A stretch of DNA of 64,000 nucleotides, taken from positions 1,612,001 through 1,676,000 of the forward strand of contig AP026546.1 in assembly GCA_026075535.2 (NCBI GenBank). The letters are read 5' to 3'. This DNA is from Tricholoma matsutake (lineage: Eukaryota > Basidiomycota > Agaricomycetes > Agaricales > Tricholomataceae). Positions 1,409-43,806 of the stretch are shown here, piece after piece. Below the pieces are notes generated by a model that had not been told where the DNA came from, did no database searches, and saw nothing but the letters and a program-made list of their open reading frames with translations. Each line of letters starts with the position of its first letter. Positions within the stretch are counted from its first letter, which is position 1. A program made the translations under genes and the position numbers.

Positions 1409-1411
1409 GAT

Positions 1412-2389
1412 GACATACAGCAGCATGTGGGTCCTTCCAAACCGAAGGCTGCAAAGCCATCGCCTACTGTCCATGGACCGTCGAGACGACAGGTCCTGGT
1501 GCACGTTCGTCCCCCCCTCGGGGCGGAAACGAACCCTGCAGACTTCTTGGACCATGTCCGAGTAACCCTCGGATTGCACCACTCTAAACTAGTGGCCCAA
1601 TCCGCATCAATGCATGCTGGTAACCTATCAGTAGCTACTGACGTTGTGGCCTCCGAGGAGGACCTTCGTTGCTTCAAGGAGGTGGCCCACAAGGCGTTTC
1701 CTTTCGCTCTGCAAGTAGATGCAGCGCTACCCACGTCCACGTCGTACCTTAAGCTGGTCGATGTGCCATTCGTCGCTAACGACAAGGCTCTTACGCCTGA
1801 TGTCGTCGTTGCACACCTGGGGAAGTCCGGAATATCGGACCTCGCAGTGTTACAAGTCCCCCCCCGGGTCGTACGTGATTCGAAGATGTCGGATACGTGC
1901 ACCGTTTATCTTAACATCGCTGACTCTGTCAGCGGTGCACGAGCCAAGGCTCTTATTGGTCGGGGCGTCCAATTTGGACGCTACGTCGCTCACATTAGGG
2001 CTGCCAGGGCGAACCCTGGGATGCCTATCTGTCAACGGTGCTGGAAGTGGGGACACCCCACCCAAGCATGCAGAGCTCCACAGACCAAATGCCCGGTCTG
2101 CGCAGGCCCACACCGCAAGGAGCACCATCGTGCCCTCGCAGGGTGTTGTAAGGGAAACGCCAAGGCGAACCCTCCCATACCAGCTACCCCAGAGGGGGCA
2201 GCCTGTCCTCACCCGGCTAGGTGCATAAACTGCCGGAAAAACCACGCATCGGACGATCGTTGATGCAACTTCTGGCGACATCGCTTTGACCGTGATTGGA
2301 TCAAAGCTCGCTATGACAAGGTGAGTGCGAGACGTAACTCTCGCCCCTCTCCTTCTTACCATCCCGCAGGACGCGGTGGCTGAATGTAA
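1412..2389 (+). pseudogene. LINE-c ORF1, C-terminal half with nonsense codons
   Basis: Starting at DIQQHVGPSKPK, this reads through the RRM-like region (VYLNIADSVSGARAK, RGVQFGRYVAHIRAARAN) into the zinc knuckles: CQRC-x4-H-x4-C, CPVC-x3-H-x4-H and CINC-x3-H. A TGA at 2261-2263 replaces the CGA found in LINE-d, and a second TGA follows shortly before the normal TAA at 2387-2389. Both look like CpG C-to-T changes. The normal stop directly abuts the ORF2 ATG. The knuckles are expected to bind the element's own RNA. The N-terminal half is missing. Confidence 0.85.
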
Positions 2390-4660
2390 ATGAGGGATAG
2401 ACTTAGATCTACACCGCAGTTGCGCATATTTAGTCAAAATGTTAACCGTAATTGGGGGTACATGGACTCTTTACTGGCTGATTTCGTAGATGATTACGAT
2501 TTGCTTTTCATCCAAGAACCGCCCTGGCGATTGATAAGACACGCTCCCTCTGCCCACAACAGGGAGGGGGAAGAAGTTATAGGTGCACCGATGAGCCCAA
2601 ATTGGGGAACGTTAGTGCGCCCCTCGGGTATTGATTCCCCTCCACGCGTTGCTGTCTATTTCGCAAACGGCATCGCTAATTTAAGACCAGGTCTCAGACG
2701 AGATCTGATCGATAACCGTGATATCCTCCTTTTCTCACTGGGAATAGGAGAGGATGTCATATTACTCGCTAACGTCTACTCAGACAGCCAACACTCCGCC
2801 ATTACGCTCCTTTTTGAGAATGTCATGACGATCCCTCGCCTACACTTCATGTGTGGCGACTTTAACGTGAGGCACGCGTCCTGGGATCCCCAGGGGCCTG
2901 AGCACTCGATTCACGCTGACCACTTAGTGGAAACAGCCACGGCATTAGGCCTGACTAGAGCCCTACCAGTAGTGGAGGGCCCTACTCACTTCCCCCCTCA
3001 ACAGGGCCTTCACCCCACGGTGATCGACCTGATGTTCGTACCTACTGATCTTAGATTTGTATTGTACTGCGAGATCGTACCTGAACCCAGGGGAACGTCT
3101 GACCACGCTCCCCTGACGTTAGTGCTGCCTGGCCCGGGATCTTTGGTTCCGGTCACCAAGTGGTCCATCAAAAAAGGATCCGAGGAGGAAGCGTCGTATC
3201 GCGATGCTGTCTCCTCCGCTCTTGATCCGTGGCTAAACTGGCACGGAGAAACGCCGGCAGAAATCGATGACGTCATCTCGGCGATATCAATGATTTTAAA
3301 CAAGGCATGGGAAAACCATGCCAAGGAATCTCGCCTCGGCAAGTCGTCCAAAGGTTGGTGGACAGATGAATGCAGCGGCGCCCTAGACGCGTACAGGGCT
3401 TCTCGGGATGGGGAAGACTGGAAGCTTTACAGGAAAGTCATGCGACAAGCAAAGCGTGCCTTTTTTGATGACCGTATCCAAGAAGTGGCTACGATGAATA
3501 GGCGACCCTGGGACTGGACTCGTCAACGCAACCTCCCATCGTATGAGGCCATCTCCTATCGGGGAGAACCCTGCAACGATCTGGACTCGCTATGGGCTGC
3601 CCTTGATGGGTCTTATAATGCTGCCTCAGATCGAGTAGTCGATCTGAGCATTCTTGATGAACTCGACCCTGTGCCTGAAAGGGTCTGGATCCCGTTCTCT
3701 GTCACGGAAATGAAAGAAGCGCTAAACGCGTGTTCTTCCCGTTCCGCTCCAGGTCCCGATCATGTTACATGGTCGCACCTTAAACACTGGTGTAGCAACC
3801 CAGAGGTGGCAGGGCTTATCACCCGCATCGCTGAGGCATGCATCACTGCAGGCCATTGGCCAGCGCATTTTAAGGAATCCCTGTCGGTTATCATCCCAAA
3901 GCCAGGGAAACCTAATTATTCTACCCCTAAGTCATTCAGACCCATCGTGCTTCTGAACACTCTGGGCAAATTAGTCGAAAAGATGTTGTCCAGACGACTT
4001 CAATTCGACGGCGTCGCACACGAGGCCTTCGAGCAGAATCAGTTCGGAGGTGTCACCCAGCGTTCCACGGAGGACGCAGGAATCTACCTCACTCATCTTG
4101 TCAGGGCAGGATGGGCCAAAGGACTTAAGACAAGTGTTGTCGCTTTCGACATCGCTCAATTCTTCCCCTCCTTGAACCACCAGGTTCTGTTGGAGATCAT
4201 CTCTCGGTCGGGGTTCCCTGCGCAAGTAGTGAACTTCTTCCGGTCTTACCTGGTCGGTCGCAAGACGACCTACAAATGGAACGCTTTCTCATTGGGCTCC
4301 TTTGCAGCAGATGTGGGAGTGGGACAAGGTTCTGCCCTGTCCCCTGTCTTATCGGCGTTATACTTGACGCCCATCATGAAGCTCTTCAGAAGAAGCGAAA
4401 TCGGCAGAGATGTCGATCTCATGTCGTATGTGGATGATGGCACCCTCATCGCCCGCTCCCCACAGTTGGAGGACAATCTCCCCCTTCTAAAGAAAGCGTA
4501 TGGCTGGATCTTCCAGGCATTCACCTCCCTCGGACTAGTCCTCGAACATGACAAGTCCGAGATATTCCACTTTTCAAGGGCGAGGAGATTCACTCCCTTA
4601 CCCATCGATCTTGGTTTCGCCCCTTACACGGGTAATACCCCTCTCAAACCCAAGGTCACC
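2390..4660 (+). CDS. LINE-c ORF2, endonuclease and reverse transcriptase part
   Basis: This is ORF2 residues 1-757, in frame up to the NAE-A1 insertion and continuing at 6930. An APE-type endonuclease comes first: FSQNVN (Asn17), FIQEPP (Glu43), CGDFN (Asp157) and TSDHAPL, the active-site set that nicks target DNA. The reverse transcriptase follows: IIPKPGKP, FRPIVLLNTLGKL, FDIAQFFPS (motif A), GQGSALSPVLSALYL and YVDDGT with catalytic Asp682 and Asp683. Together with the downstream part it gives about 1286 residues with no other stop or frameshift. A 9-bp in-frame deletion removes the LMS tripeptide present in relatives near 3512. The start follows the ORF1 TAA with no gap. Confidence 0.92.
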
Positions 4661-4663
4661 ATC

Positions 4664-5443
4664 GCTCCTTGACTTGTTACAACCACTATAAACAGTGGTA
4701 AACACCTCTGCTCAACGTTGCCAGCGACGTCGACACTTCAATTTACGTCCGATTTTCGATCAGATTTCACCATCACAAACGCTCTCGGCGTCTCCAGGCC
4801 TACCCTGATTTGCTAAGAGATCCGTCCATCCGATCTCCGTGGATGCCCCGGTCATCGTTTTTGACAATGGCCGCTATTCGTCTCGGTCTCCTGGGCTTCG
4901 AGGATCCTGGTTAGGTGAGTGCTGGCAATGAAAGAGTAGTCTGGGCCCCTATGGGAGCTTAGAGTGGGTGTGGGATGCCTACTTCAATGCTCGCCCAAGT
5001 CGTCGCATTCGTTTAGCTGGGGGAGGTCTGGTTCAGGAGGAGGGACATATTCACTGGATTGTGGGTCGTCTGGGAGACTTCCTACCTCCATGCTGTGTGA
5101 GTTTCTACATCTAGAGACCTGCTACACTGACTACCTATTGGAATACACCATCGTTAAAAGGGGCCGGGCGATGGTGCCCCCTGGTGGCTAGGTCGACGCT
5201 CTGGTGGCCGCTATTCACCACCGACTCTTTACCTCCGGCACTCACACCCTTGAGGTGTTTGGAACCGGGTTCAATCGTCCCTCCCTATCGGCAGCAGGAT
5301 TTCCGGCCTGCCTGCCCCCTCGGAGCGTCTGGAGGCTGTGTCGGGTGGACCCGGAATTGAGATAAGGGACCGTCTGTTATCGTTATCACGCTACGTATCT
5401 TGACTTCTACCGTCATCTACTAGCACTAATACACACACTCTCA
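4664..5443 (+). other. NAE-A1 5'UTR (structured leader)
   Basis: 780 nt without a convincing gene. It begins with a hairpin, ACCAC/GTGGT around 4683-4700. A stem with pairing changes between families lies near 4853-4869, and a conserved AGGTGAGTG motif lies near 4912-4921. A tRNA-like GGTTCAATC lies at 5268-5276. The same layout is present in all NAE families. Promoter activity within it is likely, since an internal promoter is needed for retroposition, but no defined promoter motif was identified. Confidence 0.7.
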
Positions 5444-6274
5444 ATGCCCAAACGGCGAACTAGAGGCCAACCACCACATCGGGGTCTACGCGACCCCGTT
5501 TTGATCACGGGCGACATCTTTGATGATGACGTCCAAGACTACGACACCCGATTCGTGCAAGACGAATCGGAGGTAGCAGCTGCTTTCAAGGCAGCTAGAG
5601 ATCTATGGGCCGGGGAAGACCTCTCCGACCCTAACGATGACGACGATGACGAGTCTCTTGCCATGCAAGAGGCTCTTCTTTTTGCCGAGGGGGGGCCTAG
5701 GCTTTCCTCGAGGAAAACGATCGATCGTGTACGATGGGCACTTGGTGTCGACGTCGAACACAAGCGCTGGGTTCGTAGCCTCCCGAAGGAGGATATATAT
5801 TCACAGGAGCTCGGCATCGCTGAGCTCCTTTATCCGGAGGCATCCACTGCCCCACCACCGCCTTGGCCCCCCATCCCTGAGTTGGTGGAGGACGAAGTGC
5901 CGTTATCTAGGGATCAGAGGCTGGAAATCGAAGCCACCTCTGATGCCATGTTACATTTACTGGACATGATGACCTCCTTTGTAGGTACTGTCCGAGTGTC
6001 CGCGGTTCCTCTCAACGACAGGAACTCTTGGCGTCAGATGGCGTGGGAGCTCTTCACCACCACCTGGCGATTCTCAGGGAGCATGATGGAGTCGCTTCGC
6101 GCGGCATCGGCTCCCCTCGACCTTACGTCTCCGGCAGCCTTCCAGGCTTCCTATGCGGCGATGCAGGCGGCTCAGTCTGCCCCACCAGCGGCAGAGCCTC
6201 CAACCGAGGAACCCTTGTCCTCGGAACGGCGTCGACGTCCTCGTGGCCCCCGCCAACGACCACGCCGAGCTTGA
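5444..6274 (+). CDS. NAE-A protein (276 aa), unknown function
   Basis: I do not recognise this family. The N-terminus is basic (MPKRRTRG). It is followed by ITGDIFDDDVQDYDTR (21-36), RDLWAGEDLSDP (52-63), an acidic run at 64-70 and QELGIAELLYPE (121-132). The best-conserved core, about residues 143-235, includes PIPELVEDEVPLS, FVGTVRVSAVPL, WRQMAWELFTTTWR and PLDLTSPAAF. An Arg-rich tail (261-276, RRRRPRGPR) could bind nucleic acid or act as a nuclear signal. There are no Cys/His zinc motifs, no membrane segment, and no likeness to LINE ORF1. Intact homologues in families B and C argue for selection on the protein. A chaperone-like role for its RNA is a guess. The start codon is shared by all families. 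Confidence 0.85.
   Translation: MPKRRTRGQPPHRGLRDPVLITGDIFDDDVQDYDTRFVQDESEVAAAFKAARDLWAGEDLSDPNDDDDDESLAMQEALLFAEGGPRLSSRKTIDRVRWALGVDVEHKRWVRSLPKEDIYSQELGIAELLYPEASTAPPPPWPPIPELVEDEVPLSRDQRLEIEATSDAMLHLLDMMTSFVGTVRVSAVPLNDRNSWRQMAWELFTTTWRFSGSMMESLRAASAPLDLTSPAAFQASYAAMQAAQSAPPAAEPPTEEPLSSERRRRPRGPRQRPRRA
5805..5829 (+). other. Conserved stem-loop inside NAE ORF
   Basis: AGGAGCTCGGC - ATC - GCTGAGCTCCT forms an 11-bp stem with one G-U pair over the ELGIAEL codons. The same hairpin occurs in NAE-B1 (11779-11799, 9 perfect pairs), NAE-C1 (34622-34642) and NAE-C3 (55340-55360). Part of the symmetry follows from repeated GAG-CTC codons, so an RNA role is not certain. Confidence 0.5.
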
Positions 6275-6917
6275 AGAAGGGGACCTCCCCTTCTCTTCAC
6301 CGCCCACCAGGGCTGTTGTCGGGATGGTGACAATATGTCGCCGCCCTTTACCTTCCCCCCACTGCGGGGGGGATGATGTCACCGAGTGCATGCTCAGAGT
6401 AGCATTTGCTCGAGGGGGGGGCTTCGACCCCCTACCTACAGTAACTCCGGTGAATAACCAGTTACGGCAGTTCCGGTGAATAACCAGCTGCCTCGTCACT
6501 GTCACTTGTGCGTCAACACAGTGATGGTCCACCTCACTCACCTGGGGTGGTCAATCCTCGTTGTCTGGTGAAAGACGGTTACTCTTCCCGCAAGGGAGGA
6601 TTTACAGTGAATTGACACTGCTTGCGCCTGATCTGACTTCGGTCGGATATGTGGCCGGGGGGACCGAGATAGCACCAGACGGCGAACTAATGGCTAGCCT
6701 TTGTGGGGGGGGCCCCTCCCCTACAGATTATTGCCTTTCCTGTCTGAGAGGACAACACTGGTACGCCCGCCGTAACGTGGCTTCTGCAAGGGACCTGGTG
6801 TGGGATGCGGGCATAGGGAATGCGTAGTCTTAGTAGTACCTTGTTTGTATCTTGACCCGCGGACTGCGATCGAGCCCCGCGTTATAAATTGTTGACCCCA
6901 AAAAAAAAAAAAAAAAA
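6275..6917 (+). other. NAE-A1 3' region and tail
   Basis: Non-coding. It holds C-run/G-run inverted repeats near 6355-6373 and 6411-6432, a doubled CCGGTGAATAACCAG motif, a CTTTCC...CTGAGAGG block also seen in the LINE 3'UTR, and the LINE-like terminal 64 nt followed by 18 A. This is the presumed LINE RT recognition end. Confidence 0.75.
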
Positions 6918-6929
6918 CCCAAGGTCACC

Positions 6930-8519
6930 TGGAGGTACCTCGGATTCTTCTTTGACCGTAAGCTTTCTTTCAAGGAGCATACGCGATTCTATTCCACCAA
7001 AGCTCTCACCACGGCGAGGGCGATGGGAATGCTGGGCAATTCTGTCAGAGGGCTAACCCCTATGCAGAAACGCCTACTCTACCGCTTGTGCGTCGTACCC
7101 ATTATGACATACGGACTCAGACTATGGCACTTTAAAGGCGCTCGCGTCAAAGGTGTCATCAAGACGTTGGCCCAAGTGCAGTCCATCGCTGCACGTTGGA
7201 TCCTCGGTGCATTCAGAACCACCCCAATCGGTGGCCTGGAAAGTATCGCAGGACTGCTGCCTATGCAGCTGTTACTGCGTCGCTTAGTCGATAGGGGGGT
7301 ATTCAGAACCCCTCTACTGGCTCCATCACACCCCCTAAGAGCGATCTTAGGGCCTAATCACGTCGGCACCACCCACTCTCATGAGCTTGGACTCTGGGGA
7401 GGGAACGTGCTCGACACACTAACCTTGCAAGGGCCGTCTGTCGCCTCGGCTGCAGCCTTGGCCTTAGTACCAGGCGATGAATTCGACCCCTTTGGGGAAG
7501 AAAACACACCTGGAAACAGAGTGAAGGATTTATTCCCCACTCGCTTCTCCTCTCATCGCCTCACCTCTAAGGAGGATGGAGCGAGGAATTCTTACAGGAG
7601 TGACCTCGACAAGGCCTGGGCGTCTGCCCAGGTCGAGGAAGACACTCTGGTCATTGCAGTGGACGCTTCGGTGCCCACAGATGCCAAATTCCAAGCTGTC
7701 GCCTGCGCTCTCGTCTTCGGACAAGGAGAGCAGGTGGATCGCGTTGTCTCAGCTTCTGGGAGGAGAACCCCCCCAGAAGTCGAACTTTTTGCTCTCCAAC
7801 TGGGCGTCTCGGCTGCGTGCAGCAGAGGTTGCAAAAAGTTGGTGATCTTTTCGGACTCTACTACGGGCATTGAGTCCCTAGTCGATCCAAAACCACGGTC
7901 TGGGCAGATCTTTGCCCTGGACGCCTGTCGCTCTCTTCGCCCCTGGTTAGCCGGGGATGAGGAGCGAAACGTTACATTCTGGCACGTCCCCTCGAAATTC
8001 GAGTGGAACGTTCACAAGATGGCTCACGATGTAGCTACATCTACCAAGATCTCCGTGGGCAGACACCCGCGGACATCGTTAGACTACCTTAAAAACCAGG
8101 TCGAAAAGGCCGTTTGCAAGGATTGGCACACCCGGTTCGCAGATCCTGCGTACCGTGGACGACACTTCTACCAACTCAAGGGAGTAGGTGGAAAACCGGT
8201 GGTACCCTCGACTCACAAAGGTGGGCCCTGGCTGAAAGTTATGGGGAACAGCACTACGCTGACTTCCCGTTCAACTCGAATGATCACTGGCCATGCTCCC
8301 ATAGGGGAGTATCGTCAACGTCTATCCCTTGACGGGGAATACCAATGCTGGTGCCTTGGTCCCGACATACAAACTCGAGACCATCTACTACGCGTCTGCC
8401 CCAAGGTGGATCACAAAGAAACTCGTGCGAGCCCAGACTCTGTCGAAGGCTTCCATGAATTCATGGACAATAATCCTGCACTAGGATCGTTCAACTCACT
8501 TGCGTGGGATCCGGGATAG
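6930..8519 (+). CDS. LINE-c ORF2, thumb, RNase H and C-terminal part
   Basis: Continuation of ORF2 in the same frame after NAE-A1, about residues 758-1286. RT connection sequence (WRYLGFFFDRKLSFKEH) is followed by an RNase H domain: AVDASV (Asp about 1002), EVELFALQ (Glu), IFSDST (Asp about 1066) and HKMAHDVA (last Asp about 1124). A C-terminal CWC-x7-H-x4-C motif resembles the Cys/His tail of Tad1-like ORF2 proteins. RNase H would remove template RNA during target-primed reverse transcription. It is open to TAG at 8517-8519. The insertion separates it from its start, so this copy cannot make the whole protein. Confidence 0.9.
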   Translation, partial: WRYLGFFFDRKLSFKEHTRFYSTKALTTARAMGMLGNSVRGLTPMQKRLLYRLCVVPIMTYGLRLWHFKGARVKGVIKTLAQVQSIAARWILGAFRTTPIGGLESIAGLLPMQLLLRRLVDRGVFRTPLLAPSHPLRAILGPNHVGTTHSHELGLWGGNVLDTLTLQGPSVASAAALALVPGDEFDPFGEENTPGNRVKDLFPTRFSSHRLTSKEDGARNSYRSDLDKAWASAQVEEDTLVIAVDASVPTDAKFQAVACALVFGQGEQVDRVVSASGRRTPPEVELFALQLGVSAACSRGCKKLVIFSDSTTGIESLVDPKPRSGQIFALDACRSLRPWLAGDEERNVTFWHVPSKFEWNVHKMAHDVATSTKISVGRHPRTSLDYLKNQVEKAVCKDWHTRFADPAYRGRHFYQLKGVGGKPVVPSTHKGGPWLKVMGNSTTLTSRSTRMITGHAPIGEYRQRLSLDGEYQCWCLGPDIQTRDHLLRVCPKVDHKETRASPDSVEGFHEFMDNNPALGSFNSLAWDPG

Positions 8520-9061
8520 GTTGTGCGCGCAGGGCGTATGACCCTCGTCTGGTTCTAGCTAGTGTTATCGGTATGTCGGGGTGGCCGTAGGGCACCAGAC
8601 GAGTCCGTTAACCCTCATAAAGGGGGCCCACCCGTGTTCAGGAGCGACTGTCAGGGAGGGGGGACACGAACCTAGGTACCGGTTCGGGGAGGCGCCTGAG
8701 CGCTTTCAGATCCGCTGTCGGTTGTGCGTTACGGCTTTGATGCTGGCTACGCCCTCCTTTCCGAGCTGAGAGGCTCACGTCGGGGCGGCAGTTTCCCCTA
8801 AATCTTGCACTCATACCCGTAGGGATTCGGGGACACAACATCGTCAAGCTCGGGTTGTCGGTACGCCACCACTGGCAAGTCCGTTTACTCGATAAAGGGG
8901 GCCCCCTTAGTGGTCATTGCAGCTATCCAGGTGGTTGGTGCGAAGATCAGCAGGAGGAGGACTTGGGCTGGGCGTAGTGTACTTCGTTTGTATGTCTCTA
9001 CCGCGGACTGCGATCGGGCGCCGCGTTATAAACTTTTGACCCAAAAAAAAAAAAAAAAAAA
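8520..9061 (+). other. LINE-c 3'UTR and poly(A)
   Basis: 523 nt with no gene. It contains GGGGGCCCCC near 8898-8907, a GAGCTGAGAGGCTCACG block near 8763 that resembles the NAE 3' region, and the end ACTGCGATCGGGCGCCGC followed by TTATAAACTTTTGACCC and 19 A. Only the terminal part is clearly shared with NAEs at high identity. Confidence 0.85.
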
Positions 9062-10632: not shown

Positions 10633-12890
10633 CATTGCTCCTTGACTTGTTACAACCACCATAAATAGTGGTAAACACCTCTGCTCAACGTTGCACACGA
10701 CGTCGACACTTCAATTCTGGTCCGATTTTCGATCGGATTTCGCCATCACGAACGCTCTCGGCGTCTCCAGGCTTGCCCTGATTTGCTAAGAGATCCGTCC
10801 ATCCGATCTCTGTGGATGCCCCGGTCACTGTTTCTGACAGTGTCTGCTATTCGTCTCGGTCTCCTGGGCTTCGAGGATCCTGGTTAGGTGAGTGCTGGCA
10901 ATGAAAGAGTAGTCTGGGCCCCTATGGGGGCTTAGAGTGGGTGTGGGATGCCTACTTCAATGCTCGCCCAAGTCGTCGCATTCGTTTAGCTGGGGGAGGT
11001 CTGGTTCAGGAGGAGGGACATATTCACTGGATTGTGGGTCGTTTGGGAGACTTCCTACCTCCATGCTGTGTGAGTTTCTACATCTAGAGACCTGCTACAC
11101 TGACTACCTATTGGAATACACCATCGTTAAAAGGGGCCGGGCGATGGTGCCCCCTGGTGGCTAGGTCGACGCTCTGGTGGCCGCTATTCACCACCGACTC
11201 TTTACCTCCGGCACTCACACCCTTGAGGTGTTTGGAACCGGGTTCAATCGTTCCTCCCAATCGGCAGCAGGATTTGCGGCCTGCCTGCCCCCTCGGAGCG
11301 TCTGGAGGCTGTGTCGGGTGGACCCGGAATTGAGATAAGGGACCGTCTGTTATCGTTATCACGCTACGTATCTTGACTTCTACCGTCATCTACTTGTGCT
11401 AAATCATCCTCAATGCCCTCTGCAAACCGTAGAGCGCGAACTCGACACCAGGCGGCTCATGGCGACCCCCTCCTATACACAAACGCCGACTTCGCAGATT
11501 TCGACGACAATTACCTCCCAGAGTTCGGACACGTCTCCCTGAGCGGATGGGACTCTGATGTGGCCAACCAGTTCCACAATCTTTGGGCGGAGGACGACTC
11601 CTCCGACCTGTCAGACGACGATGACGGCTCTGCCACCGGCGAAGACGTCGAATTCATTCCGGGTCTCACCGAGCTAGCCTCGCAGGAGACGATAAACCGC
11701 TTCTTGGCATCACAAGTGATAGCCGATGAGGTGCATGATCTGGCTCTCGAGCTTGGGCTCGAGGCCAACAACAATCAAGAGCTCGGCATCGCCGAGCTCC
11801 TCTATCCGGAGGGGCAGCAGGAGCAATCTGCGCCGCCCCTCCCCACATCACCGGGTTCATCTGCCATCCCAGAGTTGGTGGAGGATGAGCCTCCGTTGTC
11901 GAGAGATGAGAGGGTGGACATAACATCCACCTCTCATGGCTTTCTACATTTACTGGAGGCTATGACGATTTTCGTCGGTACCGTCCGAGTATCCGCCGTT
12001 CCGCTCATAGAGAGGAATGCATGGCGCCAGATGGCATGGGAACTATTCACAACCACCTGGCGATTGTCCGAGCCAATGTCGGCAGAACTAGCAGCTGCCG
12101 GATTGCCTCTCGATCTCACGTCACCGGAAGCCTTCAGGGCTTCCTACGCGGCTAGGCAGGCAGCTCATGCAGAGCTCCATCATGAGGAACCCTCGTCCTC
12201 ATCACGGCGCCGTCATCCTCGAGGTCCTCGGAGACAGCCGCGCCGCAACCTATAGGGGAACACCCCTCCACAACCATGCCCACCAAATAATTGGTGGCCG
12301 ATATCGGGATAGTGACATCTTGTCGCTTCCCTCCACCTTCCCCCCGCTGCGGGGGGGACGTTGTCATCGAGTGCATGCACATGTCGGCATTTGCTCGAAG
12401 GGGGGCCTTGGCCCCCCTGCCTACGGTAGTTCCGGTGAATAACCAGGTGAACAACCAGCTACCACATCTCTGTCACTCGTGCGCAAACACGGTGATGGTC
12501 CACCCCATTCGTCTGGGGTGGTCAATCCTCGCTGGCTGGAAGTAGGCTATCGGTTATTCCTCCCGCAAGGGGGGATTTACGGTGAATTGACACCACTGCG
12601 CCTGATCTGACTTCGGTTGGATATGTGGCCGGGGGACCGGTTGGTACCAGTGGGCGACCTAATGGCTAGCTTCGGGAGGGGGAGGCTTCCCCTCCAGATT
12701 ATTGCCTTTCCTGGCTGAGAGGCCAACGTCTGTGGCACTGCCTGCCTAAAGTGGCTAAAACGAGGACCTGGGTGGGAGATGGGCGAGGGGAACGCGTAGA
12801 TATAGTAGTACCCTAGTTTGTACCCTGCTCCGCGGACTGCGATCGAGCCCCGCGTTATAAATTGTTGACCCAAAAAAAAAAAAAAAAAAA
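10633..12890 (+). mobile_element. NAE-B1, full-length family B element
   Basis: Inserted in LINE-d ORF2 opposite to its coding direction, with 12-bp duplications at 10621-10632 and 12891-12902 and four unmatched bases (CATT) before GCTCCTTG. Its 5'UTR is closely related to family A, but the first half of the ORF differs strongly. It ends GCGTTATAAATTGTTGACCC plus A18. Confidence 0.92.
11413..12255 (+). CDS. NAE-B protein (280 aa), unknown function
   Basis: Homologue of the NAE-A protein with a diverged N-terminal half (MPSANRRARTRHQ, DFADFDDNYLPEF, acidic SDDDDGS at 67-73). The C-terminal half is well conserved: NQELGIAELLYPE (121-133), IPELVEDEPPLSRDER, FVGTVRVSAVPL (187-198), WRQMAWELFTTTWRLSE (204-220), PLDLTSPEAFRASYAA. 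It ends in the same kind of Arg-rich tail (RRRHPRGPRRQPRRN). The ORF is intact. The pattern of a variable, acidic first half and a fixed core suggests the core carries the shared function. The start codon aligns with families A and C. Confidence 0.85.
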   Translation: MPSANRRARTRHQAAHGDPLLYTNADFADFDDNYLPEFGHVSLSGWDSDVANQFHNLWAEDDSSDLSDDDDGSATGEDVEFIPGLTELASQETINRFLASQVIADEVHDLALELGLEANNNQELGIAELLYPEGQQEQSAPPLPTSPGSSAIPELVEDEPPLSRDERVDITSTSHGFLHLLEAMTIFVGTVRVSAVPLIERNAWRQMAWELFTTTWRLSEPMSAELAAAGLPLDLTSPEAFRASYAARQAAHAELHHEEPSSSSRRRHPRGPRRQPRRNL

Positions 12891-16896: not shown

Positions 16897-17437
16897 TTTT
16901 TTTTTTTTTTTTTGGGTCAAAAGTTTATAACGCGGCGCCCGATCGCAGTCCGCGGTAGAGACATACAAACAGAGTACACTACGCCCAGCCCAAGTCCTCC
17001 TCCTGCTGATCTTCGCACCAACCACCTGGATAGCTGCAAAGGCCACTAAGGGGGCTCCCTTTATCGAGTAAACAGACTTGCCAGTGGTGGCGTACCGACA
17101 ACCCGAGCTTGACGATGTCGTGTGCCCCGAATCCCTACGGGTATGTGTGCAAGATTTAGGGGAAACTGCCGCCCCGACGTGAGCCTCTCAGCTCGGAAAG
17201 GAAAGCGTAATCAGCATCGAAGCTGTGACGCATAACCGACAGCGGATCTGGAAGCGCTCAGGCGCCTCCCCGAACCGGTACCTAGGTTCGTGTCCCCCCT
17301 CCCTGACAGTCGCTCCTGAACACGGGTGGGCCCCCTTTATGAGGGTTAACAGACTCGTCTGGTGCCCACCGGCCACCCCGACATACCGATAACACTAGCT
17401 AGAACCAGACGGGGGTCATACGCCCTGCGCGCACAAC

Positions 17438-19165
17438 CTATCCTGGATCCCACGCAAGTGAGTTGAACGACCCTAGTACTGGGTTGTTGTCCATAAATTC
17501 GTTGAAGCCCTCGACAGAGTCAGGGCTTGCACGAGTTTCTTTGCGATCCACCTTGGGGCAGACGCGTAGTAGATGATCTCGAGTTTGAATGTCGGGACCA
17601 AGGCACCAGCATTGGTATTCCCCGTCAAGGGATAAGCGTTGACAATACTCCCCTATAGGAGCATGGCCAGTGATCATGCGAGTTGAACGGGAAGTCAGCG
17701 TGGTGCTGCTCCCCATAACTTTCAGCCAAGGCCCACCTTTGTGGGTCGAGGGTAAAACTGGCTTTCCACCGACTCCTTTGAGTTGGTAGAAGTGTCGTCC
17801 CCGGTACGCAGGGTCTGCGAATCGGGTGTGCCAATCCTTACAAACGGCCTTTTCGACCTGGTTTCTAAGGTAATCCAGAGACGTCCACGGGTGTCTGCCC
17901 ACGGAGATCTTGGTAGATGTAGCAACATCGTGAGCCATCTTGTGTACGTTCCACTCGAACTTCGAGGGAACATGCCAGAATGTAACGCTTCTCTCCTCAT
18001 CCCCAGCTAGCCAGGGGCGGAGGGAGCGACAAGCGTCCAGGGCAAAGATTTGCCCAGAACGTGGTTTTGGATCAATTAGGGACTCAATGCCCATAGTAGA
18101 ATCCGAGAATATCACCAACTTTTTGCATCCTCTGCTGCAGGCAGCCGAGACGCCCAGTTGGAGAGCAAAGAGTTCGACTTCTGGGGGGGTTCTCCTCCCA
18201 GAAGCTGAGACAACGCGATCAACCTGCTCTCCCTGTCCGAAGACAAGAGCGCAGGCGACGGCTTGGAATTTAGCATCCGTGGGCACCGAAGCGTCCACTG
18301 CAACGACGAGAGTGTCATCCTCAGCCTGAGCCGCAACCCAAGCCTTGTCGAGGTTACTCCTGTAAGAGTCCCTCGCCCCATCCTCCTTAGAGGTGAGGCG
18401 ATGAGAGGAGAAACGAGTGGGGAATAGATCCTTCACTCTGTTTCCAGGTGTGTTTTCTTCCCCGAAGGGGTCGAACTCATCACCTGGTACGAGGGCCAGA
18501 GCTGCAGCCGAAGCGACAGATGGGCCTTGCAGGTTAAATGTGTCGAGCACGTTCCCTCCCCAGAGTCCTAGCTCATGAGAATGGGTAGTTCCGACATGAT
18601 TGGGCCCTAAGATAGCTCTTAGGGGGTGTGACGGGGCCAATAGGGGGGTTCTGAATACCCCTCTGTCGACTAAGCGACGCAGTAACAGCTGCATAGGCAG
18701 CAGTCCTGCGATACTTTCCAGACCACCAATTGGGGTGGTTCTGAAGGCACCGAGGATCCAGCGAGCAGCGATGGACTGCACCTGGGCCAGCGTTTTGATG
18801 ACACCTTTGACGCATGCGCCTTTGAAGTGCCAGAGTCTCAATCCGTACGTCATGATGGGCACAACGCATGAATGGTAGAGAAGGCGTTTCTGCATGGGAG
18901 TTAACCCTCTTACAGAATTGCCAAGCATTCCCATTGCCCTCGCAGTGGTGAGGGCTTTGGTGGAGTAAAACCGCGTGTGCTCCTTGAAAGAGAGTTTGCG
19001 GTCGAAGAAGAAACCGAGGTACCTCCAGGTAACCTTGGGTTTGAGGGGGGTGTTGCCTGTGTAGGGGGCAAAGCCAAGATCGATAGGCAGGGGGGTGAAC
19101 CTCCTCGCCCTTGAAAAGTGAAATATTTCGGACTTGTCATGTTCGAGGACAAGTCCGAGGGAGGT
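17438..19165 (-). pseudogene. LINE-f ORF2, RNase H and thumb part
   Basis: The C-terminal ORF2 segment from TSLGLVLEHDKSE through WRYLGFFFDRKLS, the RNase H motifs (VVAVDASV, EVELFALQ, IFSDST, HKMAHDVA) and the CWCLGPDIQTRDH-type Cys/His tail, ending WDPG and stop. The segment is open. It is separated from its RT domain by NAE-B2, and a frameshift lies upstream of that insertion, so the copy is inactive. Confidence 0.88.
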
Positions 19166-20669
19166 CACGCTCCTTGACTTGTTACAACCACCATAAATAG
19201 TGGTAAACACCTCTGCTCAACGTTGCACACGACGTCGACACTTCAATTTTGGTCCGATTTTCGATCGGATTTCCCCATCACAAACGCTCTCGGCGTCTCC
19301 AGGCCTGCCCTGATTTGCTAAGAGATCCGTCCATCCGATCTCTGTGGATGCCCAGGCCACTGTTTTTGACAGTGTCTGCTATTCGTCTCGTTCTCCTGGG
19401 CTTCGAGGATCCTGGTTAGGTGAGTGTTGGCAATGAAAGAGTAGTCTGGGCCCCTATGGGGGCTTAGAGTGGGTGTGGGATGCCTACTTCAACGCTCGCC
19501 CAAGTCGTCGCATTCGTTTAGCTGGGGGAGGTCTGGTTCAGGAGGAGGGACATATTCACTGGATTGTGGGTCGTCTGGGAGGCTTCCTACCTCCATGCTG
19601 CGTGAGTTTCTACATCTAGAGACCTGCTACACTGACTACCCATTGGAATACACCATCATTAAAAGGGGCCGGGCGATGGTGCCCCCTGGTGGCTAGGTCA
19701 ACGCTCTGGTGGCCGCTACTTACCACCGACTCTTTACCTCCGGCACTCACACCCTCGAGGTGTTCGGAACCGGGTTCAATTGCCCCTCCCAATCTGCAGC
19801 AGGATTTGCGGCCTGTCTGCCCCCTCGGAGCGTCTGGAGGCTGTGTCGGGTGGACCCGGAATTGAGATAAGGGACCGTCTGTTATCGTCATCACGCTACG
19901 TATCTTGACTTCTACCGTCATCTACTTGTGCTAAATCATCCTCAATGCCCTCTACAAACCGTAGAGCACGAACTCGACACCAGGCGGCTCATGGCGACCC
20001 CCTCCTATACACAAATGCCGACTTCGCAGACTTCGACGACAACTACCTCCCAGAGTTCGGACACGTCTCCCTGAGCGGATGGGACTCTGATGTGGCTAAC
20101 CAGTTCCACAATCTTTGGGCGGAGGATGACTCCTCCGACCTGCCAGACGACGATGACGGCTCTGCCACCGGCGGAGACGTCGAATTCATTCCAGGTCTCA
20201 CCGAGCACGGTAGTTCCAGTGAATAACCAGGTGAACAACCAGCTACCACATCTCTGTCACTCGTGCGGGAGCGCGGTGATGGTCCACCTCATTCGTCTGG
20301 GGTGGTCAATCCTCGCTGGCCAGGAGTATGCAGACGGTTATTCCTCCCGCAAGGGGGGATTTACAGTGAATTAACACGGCCGCGCCTGATCTGACTTCGG
20401 TTGGATATGTGGCTGGGGGACCGTTCTGCACTGGTGGACGAGTTAATGGCTAGCTTCGGGAGGGGGGGCTCCCCCTCCAGATTATTGCCTTTCCTGGCTG
20501 AGAGGCCAACGTCTGTGGCACTGCCCGCCTAAAGTGGCTAAAACGAGGACCTGGGTAGGATATGGGTGAGGGGAAGCGTAGTTACAGTAGTACCCAAGTT
20601 TGTATCCTGCTCCGCGGACTGCGATCGAGCCCCGCGTTATAAATTGTTGACCCAAAAAAAAAAAAAAAA
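19166..20669 (+). mobile_element. NAE-B2, internally deleted family B element
   Basis: Both ends are intact: three unmatched bases then GCTCCTTGACTTG at 19169, and TTGTTGACCC plus poly(A) ending 20669. It is flanked by the 13-bp duplication GTCCGAGGGAGGT (19153-19165, 20670-20682). Compared with NAE-B4, about 749 nt are missing (equivalent to 60068-60816), fusing mid ORF to the 3' region. The deletion may predate insertion, which would show that most of the ORF is not needed in cis. Confidence 0.9.
19945..20226 (+). pseudogene. Truncated NAE-B protein (93 codons)
   Basis: The first 87 or so residues of the family B protein (MPSTNRRARTRHQ to FIPGLTEH), then a few out-of-family residues and a stop created by the 749-nt deletion. 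It lacks the conserved core and the Arg-rich tail, so it should not function. Confidence 0.8.
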
Positions 20670-20682
20670 GTCCGAGGGAGGT

Positions 20683-22823
20683 GAATGCCTGGAAAATCCA
20701 GCCATACGCATTCTTGAGAAGGGGAGGTTATCCTCCAACTGTGGAGAGCAGGCGATGAGGGTGCCATCGTCCACGTAGGACATGAGATCAACATCTCTGC
20801 CGACTTCGCTTCTTCTGAAGAGTTTCATGATAGGCGTCAAGTATAACGCCGATAAGACAGGGGACAAGGCAGAGCCTTGTCCCACTCCCACATCAGCTGC
20901 AAAGGAGCCAGATGAGAAAGCATTCCATTTGTAGGTCGTCTTGCGACCGACTAGGTATGAACGGAAGAAGTTCACTACTTGCGCAGGAAACCCCGACCGC
21001 GAGATGATCTCCAATAGAACCTGGTGGTTCAAGGAGGGGAAGAATTGAGCAATGTCGAAAGCGACAACGCTTGTTTTAAGCCCTTTGGCCCATCCTGCTC
21101 TGACTAGGTGGGTAAGGTAAATACCCGCATCCTCAGTGGAACGCTGGGCGACGCCTCCGAACTGATTTTGTTCGAAGGCCTCGTGTGCGACACCGTCGAA
21201 CTGAAGTCGCCTGGACAACATCTTTTCGACTAACTTGCCCAGAGTGTTCAGTAGCACAATAGGCCTGAACGACTTAGGGGTAGAGTAGTTGGGTTTCCCT
21301 GGTTTCGGGATAATTACCGACAGGGACTCCTTGAAGTGCGCTGGCCAGTGGCCAGCAGTGATGCACGCCTCAGCAATGCGGGTGATGAGCCCTGCCACTT
21401 CTGGGTTGCTACACCAGTGTTTTAGGTGCGACCACGTAACATGATCGGGACCTGGAGCGGAACGGGAAGAACACGCGTTGAGCGCTTCTTTCATTTCCGT
21501 GATGGAGAACGGGATCCAGGCCCTTTCAGGCACCGGATCAAGATCCTCGAGTATGCTCAGATCGACTGCTCGATCAGATGCGGCGTTATAGGACCCATCA
21601 AGGGCAGCCCACAGAGAATCCAAATCGTTGCACGGTTCTCCCCGATAGGAGATAGCCTCGTACGATGGGAGGTTGCGTTGACGAGTCCAGGACATTAGAT
21701 CCCAGGGTCGTCTGTTCATCGTAGCCACTTCCTGGATACGGTCATCAAAAAAGTCACGCTTTGCGTGTCGCATGACTTTCCTATAGAGCTTCCAGTCCCC
21801 CTCATCACGAGAGGCTCTGTAAGCGTCCAGAGCACCACTGCATTCGTCTGTCCACCAGCCTTTGGACGACTTGCCGAGGCGAGATTCCTTGGCATGGTTT
21901 TCCCATGCCTTGTTTAAGATCGTTGATATCGCCGAAACGACTTCATCGATCTCTGCCGAGGTATTTCCGTGCCAATTTAGCCACGGAGTTAAAGCGGAGG
22001 AGACAGCATCCCAATAGGATGCTTCCTCCTCGGATCCTTTTTTGATGGACCACTTGGTAACCGGAACCAAGGATCCCGGGCCAGGCAGCACTAATGTCAG
22101 GGGGGCGTGGTCAGACGTTCCCCTGGCTTCAGGCACAATCTCACAGTACAATACAAATCTGAGATCTGTAGGTACGAACATCAGGTCGATCACCGTGGGG
22201 TGAAAGCCCTGTTGAGGGGGGAAATGCGTAGGGCCCTCCACCACTGGTAGGGCTCTAGTCAGGCCTAATGCCGTAGCCGTTTCCACTAAGTGGTCAGCGT
22301 GGATAGAGTGTTCAGGCCCCTGGGGGTCCCAGGATGCGTGTCTCACGTTGAAATCGCCGCACATAAAGTGTAGGCGTGGGATCGTCATGACGCTCTCGAA
22401 TAAGAGCGTGATGGCAGTGTGTTGACTATCCGAGTAGACGTTAGCAAGTAACATGACATCCTCCCCTATTCCCAATGAGAACAGCAGGATGTCACGGTTA
22501 TCGATCAGATCTCGTCTGAGACCCGGTCTTAGATTAGCGATGCTGTTCACAAAGTATACAGCAACGCGTGGAGGGGAGTCGATGCCCGAGGGGCGCACTA
22601 ATGTTCCCCAATTTGGACTCATCGGTGCGCCTATAACTTCCTCCCCTTCCCTGTTGTGGGCAGAAGGGGCGTGTCTTATCAATCGCCAAGGTGGCTCTTG
22701 GATAAAAAGCAAATCGTAATCATCAACGAGATCAGCCAGTAACGAGTCCATGTACCCCCAATTATGGTTAACATTTTGACTAAATATGCGCAACTGCGGT
22801 GTAGATCTAAGTCTATCCCTCAT
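20683..22823 (-). pseudogene. LINE-f ORF2, endonuclease and RT part, frameshifted
   Basis: Starts MRDRLRSTPQLRIFSQNVN at 22823, with endonuclease motifs FIQEPP, CGDFN and SDHAPL, and RT motifs FDIAQFFPS and YVDDGT. A one-base deletion in the LPLLKKAYGW stretch (about 20720-20730) shifts the frame just after the YVDD box. Most residues are otherwise conserved, so the copy is young but dead. Confidence 0.87.
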
Positions 22824-24192
22824 TTACGTTCGGCCACCGCGTCCTGCGGGATGGTGAGTAGGAGGAGAGCGAGAGATGCGCCTCGCACTCACCTCGTCGT
22901 AGCGAGCTTTGATCCAGTCACAGTCAAAGCGATGTCGCCAGAAATTGCATCGACGATCGTCAGATGCGTGGTTCTTCTGGCAGTTTATGCACCTAGCCGG
23001 GTGAGGACAGGCTGCCCCCTCTGGAGTAGCTGGAATGGGAGGGTTCGCCTTGGCGTTTCCCTTACAACACCCTGCAAGGGCACGATGGTGCTCCTTACGG
23101 TGTGGGCCTGCACAGATCGGACATTTGGTCTGTGGAGCTCTGCATGCCGGGGTGGGGTGACCCCACTTCCAGCACCGTTGGCAAAGAGGCAATCCAGGGT
23201 TCGCCCTGGCTGCCCTAACATAAGCGACGTAGCGTCCAAATTGGACGCCTCGCCCGATAAGAGCCTTGGCTCATGCACCACTGACTGAGTCAGCGATGTT
23301 AAGGTATACGGTGCACGTATCCGACATTTTTGAATCGCGTACAACCCGGGGAGGGACCTGAAGCACTGTGAGGTCCGATATTCCGGACTTACCCAAGTGT
23401 GCAATGACAACATCAGGCGTTAAGGCCTTGTCGTTAGCGATAAACGGCACATCGACCAACTTGAGGTACGATGTGGAGGTGGGTAACGCTGCGTCTACTT
23501 GCAGCGCGAACGGGAACGCCTTATGGGCGGCCTCCTTGAAACAACGAAGATCCTCCTCGGAGGCAACAACGTCTGTAGCTACTGATATGTTACCAGCGTG
23601 CATTGATGCGGACTGGGCCACCAATTTGGAGTGGTGCAGTCCGAGGGTGATCCGGACATGGTCCAGGAAATCAGCTGGGTTCGTCTCCGCCCCGAGAGGG
23701 GGACGAACGTAAACAAGGACCTGTCGTCTCGACGGTCCGTGTACAGTAGGTGAAGGCTTGGACACCTTCGGTTTAGATGGACCTACATGCTGCTGTATGT
23801 CAGCCAGCTTGTCGGTTGGAAGCTCAGGGAAGGCCTTGGCTAGACGCACAAGGCCATCCATGGATGTGTTAGGTGTTCGCCCCCCAGGGAAGCGAGCAAC
23901 CTGAGCGAAGGTCCCCCTGCCCGAAGGCCTGGTGGACCAGTTCACGGGGGGAGGTGGTCCTCGACCCCATGAAGTAGAGACGCCCCCTGTTGGGGGTTTT
24001 GGAAGAGGTCGAGCCCCTTTCGGGCCTCGAGTTCTCGAAGATTTGTGAGGGGGGGGGCGTTGCCCATCCCATCCCTCCAGATAATCCACATTGGGATTGT
24101 CGGTGACCGTACCCGACCTAGGTCGTTTACTGCCCCCTGCGATTCTATCTATTGCTCCCCGGAGCAAAGAGCTCCCCGAGTCGCGATCTATG
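22824..24192 (-). pseudogene. LINE-f ORF1, 5'-truncated with nonsense codon
   Basis: From ORF1 residue of about 190 through the RRM-like region and zinc knuckles to the TAA that abuts the ORF2 ATG. TGA at 23271-23273 (normally CGA, in VSGARAK) splits it. The same codon is TGA in LINE-h at 30143-30145. Lacking a 5'UTR and start, it cannot be expressed from its own promoter. Confidence 0.85.
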
Positions 24193-26267: not shown

Positions 26268-26395
26268 GGCGCTTCTTGTCTTCTTACCGCGACGTGCACA
26301 ACCACAAAACTTTTTCGTCGACTCCGTTTTCATACTTTGCAGCTCAATCCGTCCTCGATCCCAGCGATCCGGTATAACCAGCGTCTTACCAACGC

Positions 26396-29398: not shown

Positions 29399-29407
29399 GG
29401 GGCTCGA

Positions 29408-33549: not shown

Positions 33550-34189
33550 TTTTTTTTTTTTTTTTTTTTTGGATCAGAATTTATAACGCGGGGCTCGAAC
33601 GCAGTCCGCGGAGCAAGGTACAAACTTGGGTACTACTTTATCTACGCGTTCCCCTCGCCCATCTCCCACTCAGGTCCCCGTTTTAGCCACCTTTAGGCGG
33701 GCAGTTCCACAGACGTTGGCCTCTCAGCCAGGAAAGGCAATAATCTGGAGGGGGCGCCCCCCCCTCCCGAAGTTAGCCATTAGATCGCCCCCTGGAGCAA
33801 ACGGTCCCCCAGCCACATGTCCAACCGAGGCCAGACCAGGCGCAGCAGTGTTAATTCACCGTAAATCCCCCCTTGCGGGAGGAATAACCGTCTGCGTTTT
33901 TCCAGCCAACGAGGATTGACCACCCCAGACAAATGAGGTGGACCATCACCGTGTTGTGCACGAGTGACAGTAACAAGGCGGGTGGTTGTTCACCTGGTTA
34001 TTCACCATGACCGCCGTAAGTAGGGGGCCGAGACCCCCCTCAAGCAAATGCACCCATGTGCACGCACTCGATGACATTGTCCCCCCCGCAGTGGGGGGAA
34101 GGTATAGGGAAGCGACACCATGTCACCATCCCGATAGTGGCCACCAGTTACTTGGTGGCCGTGAACGTAGAGGGGGATAGCCCCCTGTA

Positions 34190-34999: not shown

Positions 35000-35630
35000 T
35001 GAGAGGGGAAGTTAGTACTAGTAGGTGATAGTAGAAATCAAGATACGTAGCGTGCCATCGATAACAGCTGGTCCCTTATCTCGATTCCGGGTCCACCCGA
35101 TACTGCCTCCGAACGCTCCGAGGGGGGGACAGGCCGCACATCCTGTAACCCAGTGGGAGAAGATTGAACCCGGGTCAGACCACCCTAGAAGAGTGAGCAC
35201 CGGAGGTAGAGAGTTGGTGGAGAGTGGCGGCCACCAAGGTGTCGACCTAGCCGCCAGGGGGCACCATCGCCCGGCCCCTTTTAACGATGGTGTATTCCAA
35301 CGGGTAGTCAGTGTAGCATGTCTCTAGTAATAGAAACTCACAGAGCATGGAGGCTAGAAGCCTCCCAGACAACTAGCAATCCAGTGATAACGTCCCTTCT
35401 CCCTAAGCCAGACCTCCCCCAACTAAACGAGTGTGTCGACTTGGGCGAGCATTGAAGCAGGCATCCCACACCCGCTCTAAGCCCCCATAGGGACCCAGAC
35501 TACTCTTTCATAGACATCACTCACCTAGCCAGGATCCTCGAAGCCAAGGGGAACAAGACAGATAGCAGTCACTGTTGGAAACAATGACCGAGACATCCCC
35601 GGAGATCGGATGGACGGATCTCTTAGCAAA

Positions 35631-35840
35631 TCAGGGCAAGCCTGGAGACACCGAGAGCGTTCGTGATGGTGAAATCCGATCGAAAATCGGACAAAAATTG
35701 AAGGGTCGACGTCGCGTGCAACGTTGAGCAGAGGTGGTGTCGTAGTCTTGGACGCCATCGTCATAGATGTCACCCGTAATCAGGGAGGGGTCGTATAGAC
35801 CCCAGCGTGGTGTTTGGGCTCTGGTTTGCCGTTTAGGCAT
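35631..35840 (-). pseudogene. Truncated first copy of the NAE-C start
   Basis: MPKRQTRAQTPRWGLYDP through QDYDT matches the normal N-terminus (about 35 codons). It then runs into the second 5'UTR copy and ends after 69 codons. The joint at about 35736/35737 shares a GGTG/GTGT stretch between the two parents, as expected for template switching or short-homology joining. Confidence 0.8.
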
Positions 35841-39842: not shown

Positions 39843-39871
<29 letters not shown>

Positions 39872-43774: not shown

Positions 43775-43806
43775 CCCCCCCTCAAACTGTACAGCGCTCT
43801 AAGCAG

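What the first reader, a model, noticed from the sequence alone, without database searches (positions are those of the whole stretch)
4661..6917. Protein-coding non-autonomous retroposons that wear the ends of a LINE
Seen: a 2.25-kb unit with 12-bp target duplications, poly(A) tail and one intact 276-aa ORF, but no endonuclease or RT. Families A-D are all present here. The 3' end matches the resident LINE. Known: most LINE-dependent elements are short and non-coding (SINEs), or keep a gag-like ORF1 (HAL1, HeT-A). This protein resembles neither LINE ORF1 nor any family I know. Inference: a class of coding passengers that use LINE ORF2 in trans while keeping their own protein. This is my main candidate for an undescribed system.
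Basis: partly seen in the sequence, partly recalled or inferred. Interest (0 to 1): 0.88.

Follow-up and report, generated by a model that had tools for sequence, protein, structure and literature searches.

The report
Protein-coding passenger of a mushroom LINE
In the presumed centromeres of the matsutake mushroom sits a jumping gene that seems to borrow the copying machinery of a larger jumping gene while carrying a protein of its own with almost no known relatives; it is real and unusual, but its protein has been in public databases for years and it is probably the element named marY2N.

Summary
Confirmed: 4661-6917 is a complete retroposon (12-bp target duplication, poly(A), intact 276-aa ORF, no enzyme domain found) inside a LINE. 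The genome matches the Tricholoma matsutake telomere-to-telomere assembly. LINE and these elements cover 94% of the window and cluster in 14 chromosomal blocks, matching the published presumed centromeres. The element shares only its first ~18 nt and last ~42-100 nt with an intact resident 6.4-kb LINE (CCHC ORF1; endonuclease, RT and RNase H in ORF2), plus similar target duplications. I read it as a LINE passenger. Its ORF shows purifying selection between families and has one diverged full-length relative, but is not needed in cis: family D, with a broken ORF, has at least 40 matches of 99-100% identity over 701 bp, and 2 of 3 fetched copies have 14-bp duplications. So there are three tiers: LINE, coding passenger, ORF-less derivative. 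"Undescribed" is not supported: the family-C protein is deposited as "CzcA-like protein" (Q9C4A5, 276 of 279 identical), probably from marY2N (Murata et al. 2001, not readable here). I did not find the LINE partnership, shared ends or ORF-less tier described in the listings and passages I saw. The protein's function is unknown; I infer an RNA-binding helper.

The parts
4649..4660 (+). 5' target-site duplication CCCAAGGTCACC (15 bp if the preceding AAA is counted)
4661..6917 (+). focal family-A element (marY2N-like passenger), complete, poly(A) included
4663..4680 (+). 5' terminal motif CGCTCCTTGACTTGTTAC shared with the LINE 5' end (CGCTTCTTGTCYTSTTAC)
4681..5443 (+). 5' untranslated region, exchanged between families (96% A/C over the first 769 bp of the element, while the ORF windows are 50-73% alike)
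5444..6274 (+). 276-aa ORF; acidic first half, conserved C-terminal half, Arg-rich tail; no Pfam/NCBIfam match
6275..6856 (+). 3' untranslated region, no strong similarity to the LINE except weakly in its last ~60 nt
6857..6899 (+). 3' terminal block shared with the LINE (CCGCGGACTGCGATCGAGCCCCGCGTTATAAATTGTTGACCC)
6900..6917 (+). poly(A) tail, A18
6918..6929 (+). 3' target-site duplication CCCAAGGTCACC
1411..9061 (+). host LINE copy (5' part not complete here), ORF2 at 2390-4672 (cut) and 7023-8519, poly(A) at 9043-9061
10633..12890 (+). family-C element, TSD AAATCTAAGATCTGT, ORF 11413-12255 (280 aa)
16913..24192 (-). 5'-truncated LINE (starts at LINE position about 672) inserted in a passenger, 16-bp TSD AATCCTCGCTGGCTGG, with further nested insertions
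19166..20669 (+). family-C deletion derivative (1.49 kb), TSD AAGTCCGAGGGAGGT, ORF cut to 93 aa
26266..38090 (+). full-length LINE copy with a 12-14-bp target duplication (AGGTGGACCATC, AC), inserted in a family-D element and itself interrupted by family A (27137-29395) and family B (33552-36617)
27137..29395 (+). family-A element, TSD AAAGGGGCTCGA
33552..36617 (-). family-B element with tandem duplicated 5' region, TSD AGGTCACTCCTATA, ORF 34190-34999 (269 aa)
39871..41717 (-). family-D element, 1845 nt plus A29 (poly(A) runs below 39871), ORF broken (60-aa start fragment, 117-aa fragment), no exact TSD
45235..46884 (+). family-D element, 3' part missing, ORF broken
46886..49143 (+). family-A element without an exact TSD
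49948..51832 (+). family-B element, ORF frameshifted (208 + 114 aa), no exact TSD
54271..56495 (-). family-B element, TSD ATTAGGGACTCAAT, ORF 54908-55717 (269 aa)
59028..61292 (+). family-C element, ORF 59807-60646 (279 aa), 276/279 identical to Q9C4A5 'CzcA-like protein'; no exact TSD

Best explanation
The unit is a coding, non-autonomous non-LTR retroposon, most likely of the T. matsutake marY2N family. Its polyadenylated RNA is copied into chromosomal sites by target-primed reverse transcription, using the ORF2 protein (and perhaps ORF1) of the resident 6.4-kb LINE, which has CCHC ORF1 and APE-type endonuclease, RT and RNase H in ORF2. Recognition would run through the shared 3' block and poly(A). 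The shared 18-nt start is probably a promoter or transcription-start element, as in trypanosomatid LINE/passenger pairs. The 269-280-aa protein is or was under purifying selection and most likely helps the family's RNA in trans (basic Arg-rich tail binding RNA, acidic N-terminal part), because ORF-broken family D spreads without making it. Shown here: anatomy, shared ends, target duplications, shared location, selection signature, spread of family D. Inferred: transcription, use of the LINE proteins, translation and function of the protein.
For: Complete ends, poly(A) and 12-18-bp TSDs in 46 of 66 rows. A as first TSD base in 41 of 43 and C or T before it in 37 of 43 distinct TSDs. Three LINE copies have TSDs of like length: 16 bp C|A in an intact copy, 16 bp C|A in a 5'-truncated one, 12-14 bp G|A in the copy at 26266. 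BLAST finds only the last 42 nt common to LINE and passenger; the 5' motif adds 15 of 18 nt. LINE ORF2: 35 of 59 scored rows show a 1289-aa frame with no stop in the aligned part (my count); 3 of 3 fetched copies have an intact ORF2 and 1 of 3 also an intact 640-aa ORF1 and both ends. All but 3 of 423 passenger rows and the 59 LINE rows lie in, or within about 12 kb of, the same 14 blocks by my reading of the tables. Nesting runs D, then LINE, then A and B, and another passenger was also entered by a LINE, so both were active in overlapping times. Between-family pN/pS 0.40/0.48/0.58 and no stops, against 300 neutral simulations each with minima 0.51/0.64/0.62 and a mean of 7-11 stops. Diverged full-length relative P0012 keeps many of the same motifs and the Arg-rich tail.
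Against: No expression or retrotransposition data. The 3' block does not fold better than shuffles in 4 of 5 sequences (z -0.63, -0.61, 0.28, 0.30; -1.75 in the fifth), so structure-based recognition is not shown. The 5' similarity is short and weak beyond 18 nt (24 of 1000 shuffles over 150 nt). 20 of 66 rows lack an exact TSD. The A at the TSD start is partly forced because the TSD abuts poly(A). Only 3 LINE TSDs were compared, and one reads G|A. B-C pN/pS (0.58) lies only just below the lowest simulation (0.62), and the simulation uses CpG and transition weights that I chose.
Confidence: 0.85

Rival explanations
1. HAL1/HeT-A-like: the ORF is a strongly diverged ORF1/gag of this or another LINE, and the element is a LINE that lost ORF2.
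For: One short protein with a basic tail in an mRNA-like element with LINE ends; the charge layout (acidic then basic) would suit an RNA-binding gag-like protein.
Against: No CCHC knuckles: 0 Cys in the A, B and C proteins tested, 1 in P0012. No sequence or profile relation to the resident ORF1 (hhalign probability 0.1%, E 0.44; best BLASTP E 0.22), though the ORF1 profile held only 3 near-identical sequences. No Pfam or NCBIfam match. Outside the two termini no DNA similarity to the LINE by BLAST at E 0.01. AlphaFold models are too poor to compare folds (mean pLDDT 37 and 40).
Confidence: 0.12
2. The ORF is a captured host gene: an mRNA of a fungal gene acquired LINE ends and became a retroposon (SVA- or retrogene-like in origin). 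This can hold together with LINE dependence.
For: Nothing but termini shared with the LINE; protein unlike catalogued mobile-element proteins.
Against: Of 423 scored rows only 3 lie outside the 14 blocks: C6:6835138 has 3 stops, C12:9880894 has 2, and C12:9911515 is open but sits at the chromosome end. No host homologue surfaced in three protein searches, which reach only proteins sharing 5-residue words (7992-7994 candidates scored each). Only the top 140-143 rows per genome query were scored, so a distant host gene could be missed.
Confidence: 0.15
3. The ORF is incidental: it is kept only because a translated mRNA meets the LINE protein at the ribosome, and the amino-acid sequence does not matter.
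For: Family D amplified after losing the ORF.
Against: pN/pS below every one of 300 neutral simulations in three of three family pairs, no stops; motifs kept in a relative at 33-41% identity.
Confidence: 0.12

Closest known systems
marY2N (Murata, Miyazaki & Yamada 2001, AB047280), Tricholoma sect. Caligata
   Same: T. matsutake LINE-like element resembling an mRNA with poly(A); marY2N-like sequences enriched at presumed centromeres of T. bakamatsutake (PMC10627285, passages read). The deposited T. matsutake protein Q9C4A5 'CzcA-like' is 276/279 identical to the family-C ORF.
   Different: I could not read the 2001 paper or AB047280, so that Q9C4A5 comes from marY2N is inference. The focal family-A protein is 49-54% identical to Q9C4A5.
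Trypanosomatid retroposons with the Pr77 5' end (L1Tc; NARTc, ingi, RIME recalled)
   Same: Coding and non-coding elements share the 5' terminus (77 nt; a Pol II promoter in L1Tc; PMC4748587, abstract read).
   Different: Passengers there are non-coding (recalled); here most families code. The shared 5' stretch here is about 18 nt, and no HDV-like ribozyme reached E <= 1 in an Rfam scan of the window.
HeT-A (Drosophila) and HAL1 (mammals) (recalled)
   Same: RT-less coding elements dependent on another element's enzyme; HeT-A, like this, is confined to one chromosomal compartment.
   Different: Their proteins are gag/ORF1 relatives; this one is not detectably so.
Sadhu elements of Arabidopsis (PMC2848041, abstract and passages)
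   Same: About 0.9-kb poly(A) retroposons, 7-16-bp TSDs, presumed LINE-mobilised, no similarity to known small RNAs.
   Different: Non-coding; the source of the enzyme is stated as unclear in the passages read.
SINEs with LINE-derived 3' tails (recalled)
   Same: 3' end shared with the partner LINE.
   Different: SINEs are Pol III-transcribed, short and non-coding.

Membership tests
marY2N | T. matsutake poly(A) element encoding the protein deposited as CzcA-like (Q9C4A5); that this protein belongs to marY2N is inferred | tested here: met
   276/279 identity of window 59807-60643; family A 49-54%, family B about 54% (against the window family-C protein)
marY2N | Nucleotide identity to AB047280 | not testable with these tools
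   paper not held; the record is in no collection offered
LINE-dependent non-autonomous retroposon | TSD and poly(A), no own RT/EN | tested here: met
LINE-dependent non-autonomous retroposon | 3' end shared with a resident LINE that has intact enzymes | tested here: met
LINE-dependent non-autonomous retroposon | Mobilised by that LINE's protein in trans | not testable with these tools
   needs an assay
SINE | tRNA/7SL/5S-derived Pol III head | tested here: not met
   Rfam scan at E <= 1 gives only 4 sub-threshold Chlorobi-1 hits; ARAGORN finds no tRNA in the window
HAL1/HeT-A type (ORF1-only LINE) | ORF is a LINE ORF1/gag relative (CCHC or profile match) | tested here: not met
   remote homology by fold could not be tested
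CzcA (RND efflux pump) | RND family match, membrane helices | tested here: not met
   no Pfam match for the 5 window proteins; highest 19-residue Kyte-Doolittle mean 0.75-1.84 in A, B, C and P0012
Tad1/I-like LINE (for the partner; clade names recalled) | CCHC ORF1; APE endonuclease, RT and RNase H in ORF2 | tested here: inconclusive
   Pfam Exo_endo_phos, Exo_endo_phos_2, RVT_1 and RVT_3 (the last near its cut-off); CCHC read by eye in ORF1; no RT tree made
Trypanosomatid-type pair with HDV-like 5' ribozyme | HDV-like ribozyme at the 5' end | tested here: not met

The most novel reading that the evidence does not exclude
A three-tier parasitic economy in fungal centromeres: a LINE supplies enzymes; a coding passenger supplies its own orphan RNA-binding protein as a shared good, acting in trans; and an ORF-less derivative (family D) exploits both. 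The orphan protein would be a new kind of retroposon accessory factor, possibly one that steers insertions to centromeric chromatin, as HeT-A Gag does at telomeres.
Probability: 0.25. Interest if true: 0.78.

Novelty: new variant of a known kind. Interest (0 to 1): 0.5.

Why it matters
LINE passengers are normally non-coding or keep a LINE-type ORF1 (general knowledge). A passenger that keeps an unrelated protein under selection, while an ORF-less derivative spreads beside it, makes it testable whether a retroposon protein can act in trans for its family. The passengers also make up 44% of this window of presumed centromere and, with the LINE, mark 14 candidate centromeres, two of them on chromosome 1, which bears on how large fungal centromeres are built.

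Tried and rejected
Rejected: SINE (no Pol III head found); CzcA transporter; HDV-like ribozyme at the shared 5' end; ORF1 origin by sequence; conserved 3' stem-loop as proven recognition element. Led nowhere: two AlphaFold jobs (mean pLDDT 37 and 40), so no fold search was made; profile search of solved structures (only 40S S25 at E 0.78); a third protein search, on an alignment headed by P0012, added nothing. The within-family pN/pS of 0.18 is not used as evidence, because those copies had been ranked by protein similarity. Literature searches: matsutake/telomere/centromere/LINE (20 listed of 27,750), marY2N (6 listed, one relevant), CzcA-like with Tricholoma (none), AB047280/Q9C4A5 (one paper), trypanosomatid pairs (8 of 20 listed), HAL1/HeT-A/retroposon (12 of 34), non-autonomous LINE terms (25 of 70), Sadhu/HeT-A terms. 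None of the listings or passages seen described the LINE partnership; subscription papers are not covered.

Corrected on re-check: the number of loci in which RT fusion is excluded (55 of 60, not 60), the mean simulated stops (7-11), the identity of family A to Q9C4A5 (49-54%), the G|A site of one LINE, and the wording on P0007/P0011; two calls were added (90, 91).
Full report
What the window is. The window is G000:C9:1612001-1676000 of a 161,040,721-base, 13-contig genome. These figures equal the T. matsutake telomere-to-telomere assembly of Kurokochi et al. 2023 (PMC10211490; passages read), which reports LINE-rich, GC-rich regions, one per chromosome and two on chromosome 1, as possible centromeres. 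The window is GC-rich (48-58% per 2 kb). By BLAST, LINE covers 32,282 and passenger elements 27,894 of 64,000 bases, together 94%.

The observation. The unit at 4661-6917 is as described: 12-bp duplication, A18, one 276-aa ORF. It sits in ORF2 of a LINE. Five window proteins (276, 280, 279, 269, 269 aa) align over their length, the others 53-71% identical to the first, and have no Pfam match up to E 0.1.

The partner. LINE ORF2 carries Exo_endo_phos, RVT_1 and RVT_3 matches. One full-length window copy (26266-38090) has ORF1 with CCHC-like motifs (638 codons, one in-frame stop) and ORF2 (one in-frame stop), 6447 nt without poly(A) when two nested passengers are left out. Intact copies exist: 3 of 3 fetched copies have an uninterrupted 1289-aa ORF2, and one of them is complete, with a 640-aa ORF1 and a 16-bp duplication. 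In the genome search 35 of 59 scored rows (1693 candidates) show a 1289-aa frame without a stop in the aligned part (my count from the table; stops outside the aligned part were not checked).

Shared ends. Against an intact LINE, BLAST (E 0.01) finds only the last 42 nt (88% for A and C, 83% for B); a weaker local alignment extends to about 100 nt. The alignment of 7 LINE and 13 passenger 3' ends of the window shows the common block. The 5' termini share 14-16 of 18 nt (anchored binomial P 6.5e-6 to 3.8e-8; 15 of 18 against the intact LINE). Beyond that the 5' similarity is weak (24 of 1000 shuffles over 150 nt), and 80-300 nt from the 3' end there is none (358 of 1000).

Insertion. Of 84 rows with a 5' end (window and 60 loci; window copies recur among the loci, two loci show a second 5' end, L012 and L058 gave none), 66 had a recognisable 3' end and 46 an exact duplication of 12-18 bp. 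In 55 of the 60 loci both ends flank the ORF 2197-2243 nt apart (my count). In 43 distinct duplications the first base is A in 41 and the base before it C or T in 37; the A is partly forced because the duplication abuts poly(A). LINE duplications: 16 bp, C|A in the intact copy; 16 bp, C|A for the 5'-truncated LINE at 24192-16913, which split a passenger; 12-14 bp, G|A for the copy at 26266, which split a family-D element.

Location. Three protein searches gave 140, 143 and 140 rows out of 1814, 2107 and 1285 candidates (in one search two rows are pieces of one copy). By my reading of the tables all but 3 of the 423 rows fall in 14 blocks, two of them on C1 (about 7.2-7.5 and 16.0-16.9 Mb), about 6.9 Mb or 4% of the genome. 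The exceptions are C6:6835138, C12:9880894 and C12:9911515. The 59 LINE rows and the 40 full-length family-D rows lie in, or within about 12 kb of, the same blocks. All lists are capped, so rarer copies elsewhere are not excluded.

Selection. NG86 dN/dS between families is 0.30 (A-B), 0.27 (A-C) and 0.43 (B-C). Uncorrected pN/pS is 0.40, 0.48, 0.58, against 300 neutral simulations each with means 0.77-0.81, minima 0.51, 0.64, 0.62 and a mean of 7-11 stops, where the real representatives have none. Premature stops in 28 of 30 A loci (two of other length dropped) and 30 of 30 B loci are all CGA to TGA, 5 and 3.

The protein elsewhere. The first search (10 hits, E <= 0.001) and second (12 hits, E <= 1) returned proteins labelled T. 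matsutake, two environmental fragments close to families B and A (P0007, P0011) and P0012, a 251-aa protein from a 909-bp ENA contig, 33-41% identical by partner and method, with many of the same motifs and an Arg-rich tail. A third search (11 hits) added none. The best hit, Q9C4A5 'CzcA-like protein', is 276/279 identical to window ORF 59807-60643. marY2N (AB047280) is described in PMC10627285 as a T. matsutake LINE resembling an mRNA with poly(A), exclusive to section Caligata so far, with marY2N-rich regions in presumed centromeres of T. bakamatsutake (passages). That Q9C4A5 is the marY2N product is my inference.

Family D. D elements are 1845-1846 nt and carry a 60-62-aa start fragment and a 117-aa fragment instead of the ORF. 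A 701-bp piece over the broken ORF has 40 full-length matches of 99-100% identity (40 of 1469 candidates scored). Of 3 such copies fetched, 2 had both ends and exact 14-bp duplications; in the third the 5' end was not found; the window copy at 39871-41717 has no exact duplication. So D spread after the ORF broke. Hence the protein is not needed in cis; whether it is supplied in trans is not known.

History and mosaicism. Between 25.9 and 39.6 kb a D element was split by a LINE, which was then entered by an A and a B element. The B element has a tandem duplication of its 5' region with a short ACACC-like overlap at the junction (by eye). 5' regions are exchanged between families: A1 is 95-100% identical to C1 from 151 to 750 but 50-73% in the ORF windows up to 1500. 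Template switching during reverse transcription or gene conversion could do this; I did not tell them apart.

Verdict. The element's protein was already public, so 'undescribed' fails in part; the paired-end LINE dependence and the ORF-less tier are what this work adds, as far as the papers I could search show. I rate it a new variant of a known kind.

Noticed in passing
window 33552-36617 (-): Family-B element with a tandem duplicated 5' region including the first ~60 bp of the ORF; loci L043 and L053 also show a second 5' terminus upstream.
   Followed up: partly
window 43807-45186 (-): Copia-type RVT_2 fragment (E 2e-59) in the longest stretch not covered by LINE or passenger (43397-45235).
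   Followed up: no
window 1-1411: Two LINE 5' ends on the minus strand (1154 and 1415) abut a plus-strand 5'-truncated LINE, a head-to-head arrangement with repeated 5' pieces; simple twin priming does not fit because the two parts overlap in LINE coordinates.
   Followed up: partly
L009-L068 ORFs: Near half of the substitutions within families A and B are CpG transitions (121 of 270; 181 of 361) though CpG makes up 17-18% of sites, and all 8 premature stops are CGA to TGA, as expected of methylated-CpG decay.
   Followed up: partly
window 46884-46887: Family-A element 46886-49143 lacks an exact TSD and follows directly on a 3'-truncated family-D element; possibly a template-switch chimera.
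   Followed up: no
G000:C12:9880894 and 9911515: Two passenger copies near the end of C12 (length 9,912,917), outside the main block.
   Followed up: no
window 4877-4924 and 36411-36364 (-): A 15-codon upstream ORF (MAAI..LLGFEDP.) occurs in the 5' region of the focal A element and in one of the two 5' copies of the B element at 33552-36617, ending right before GTGAGT.
   Followed up: no
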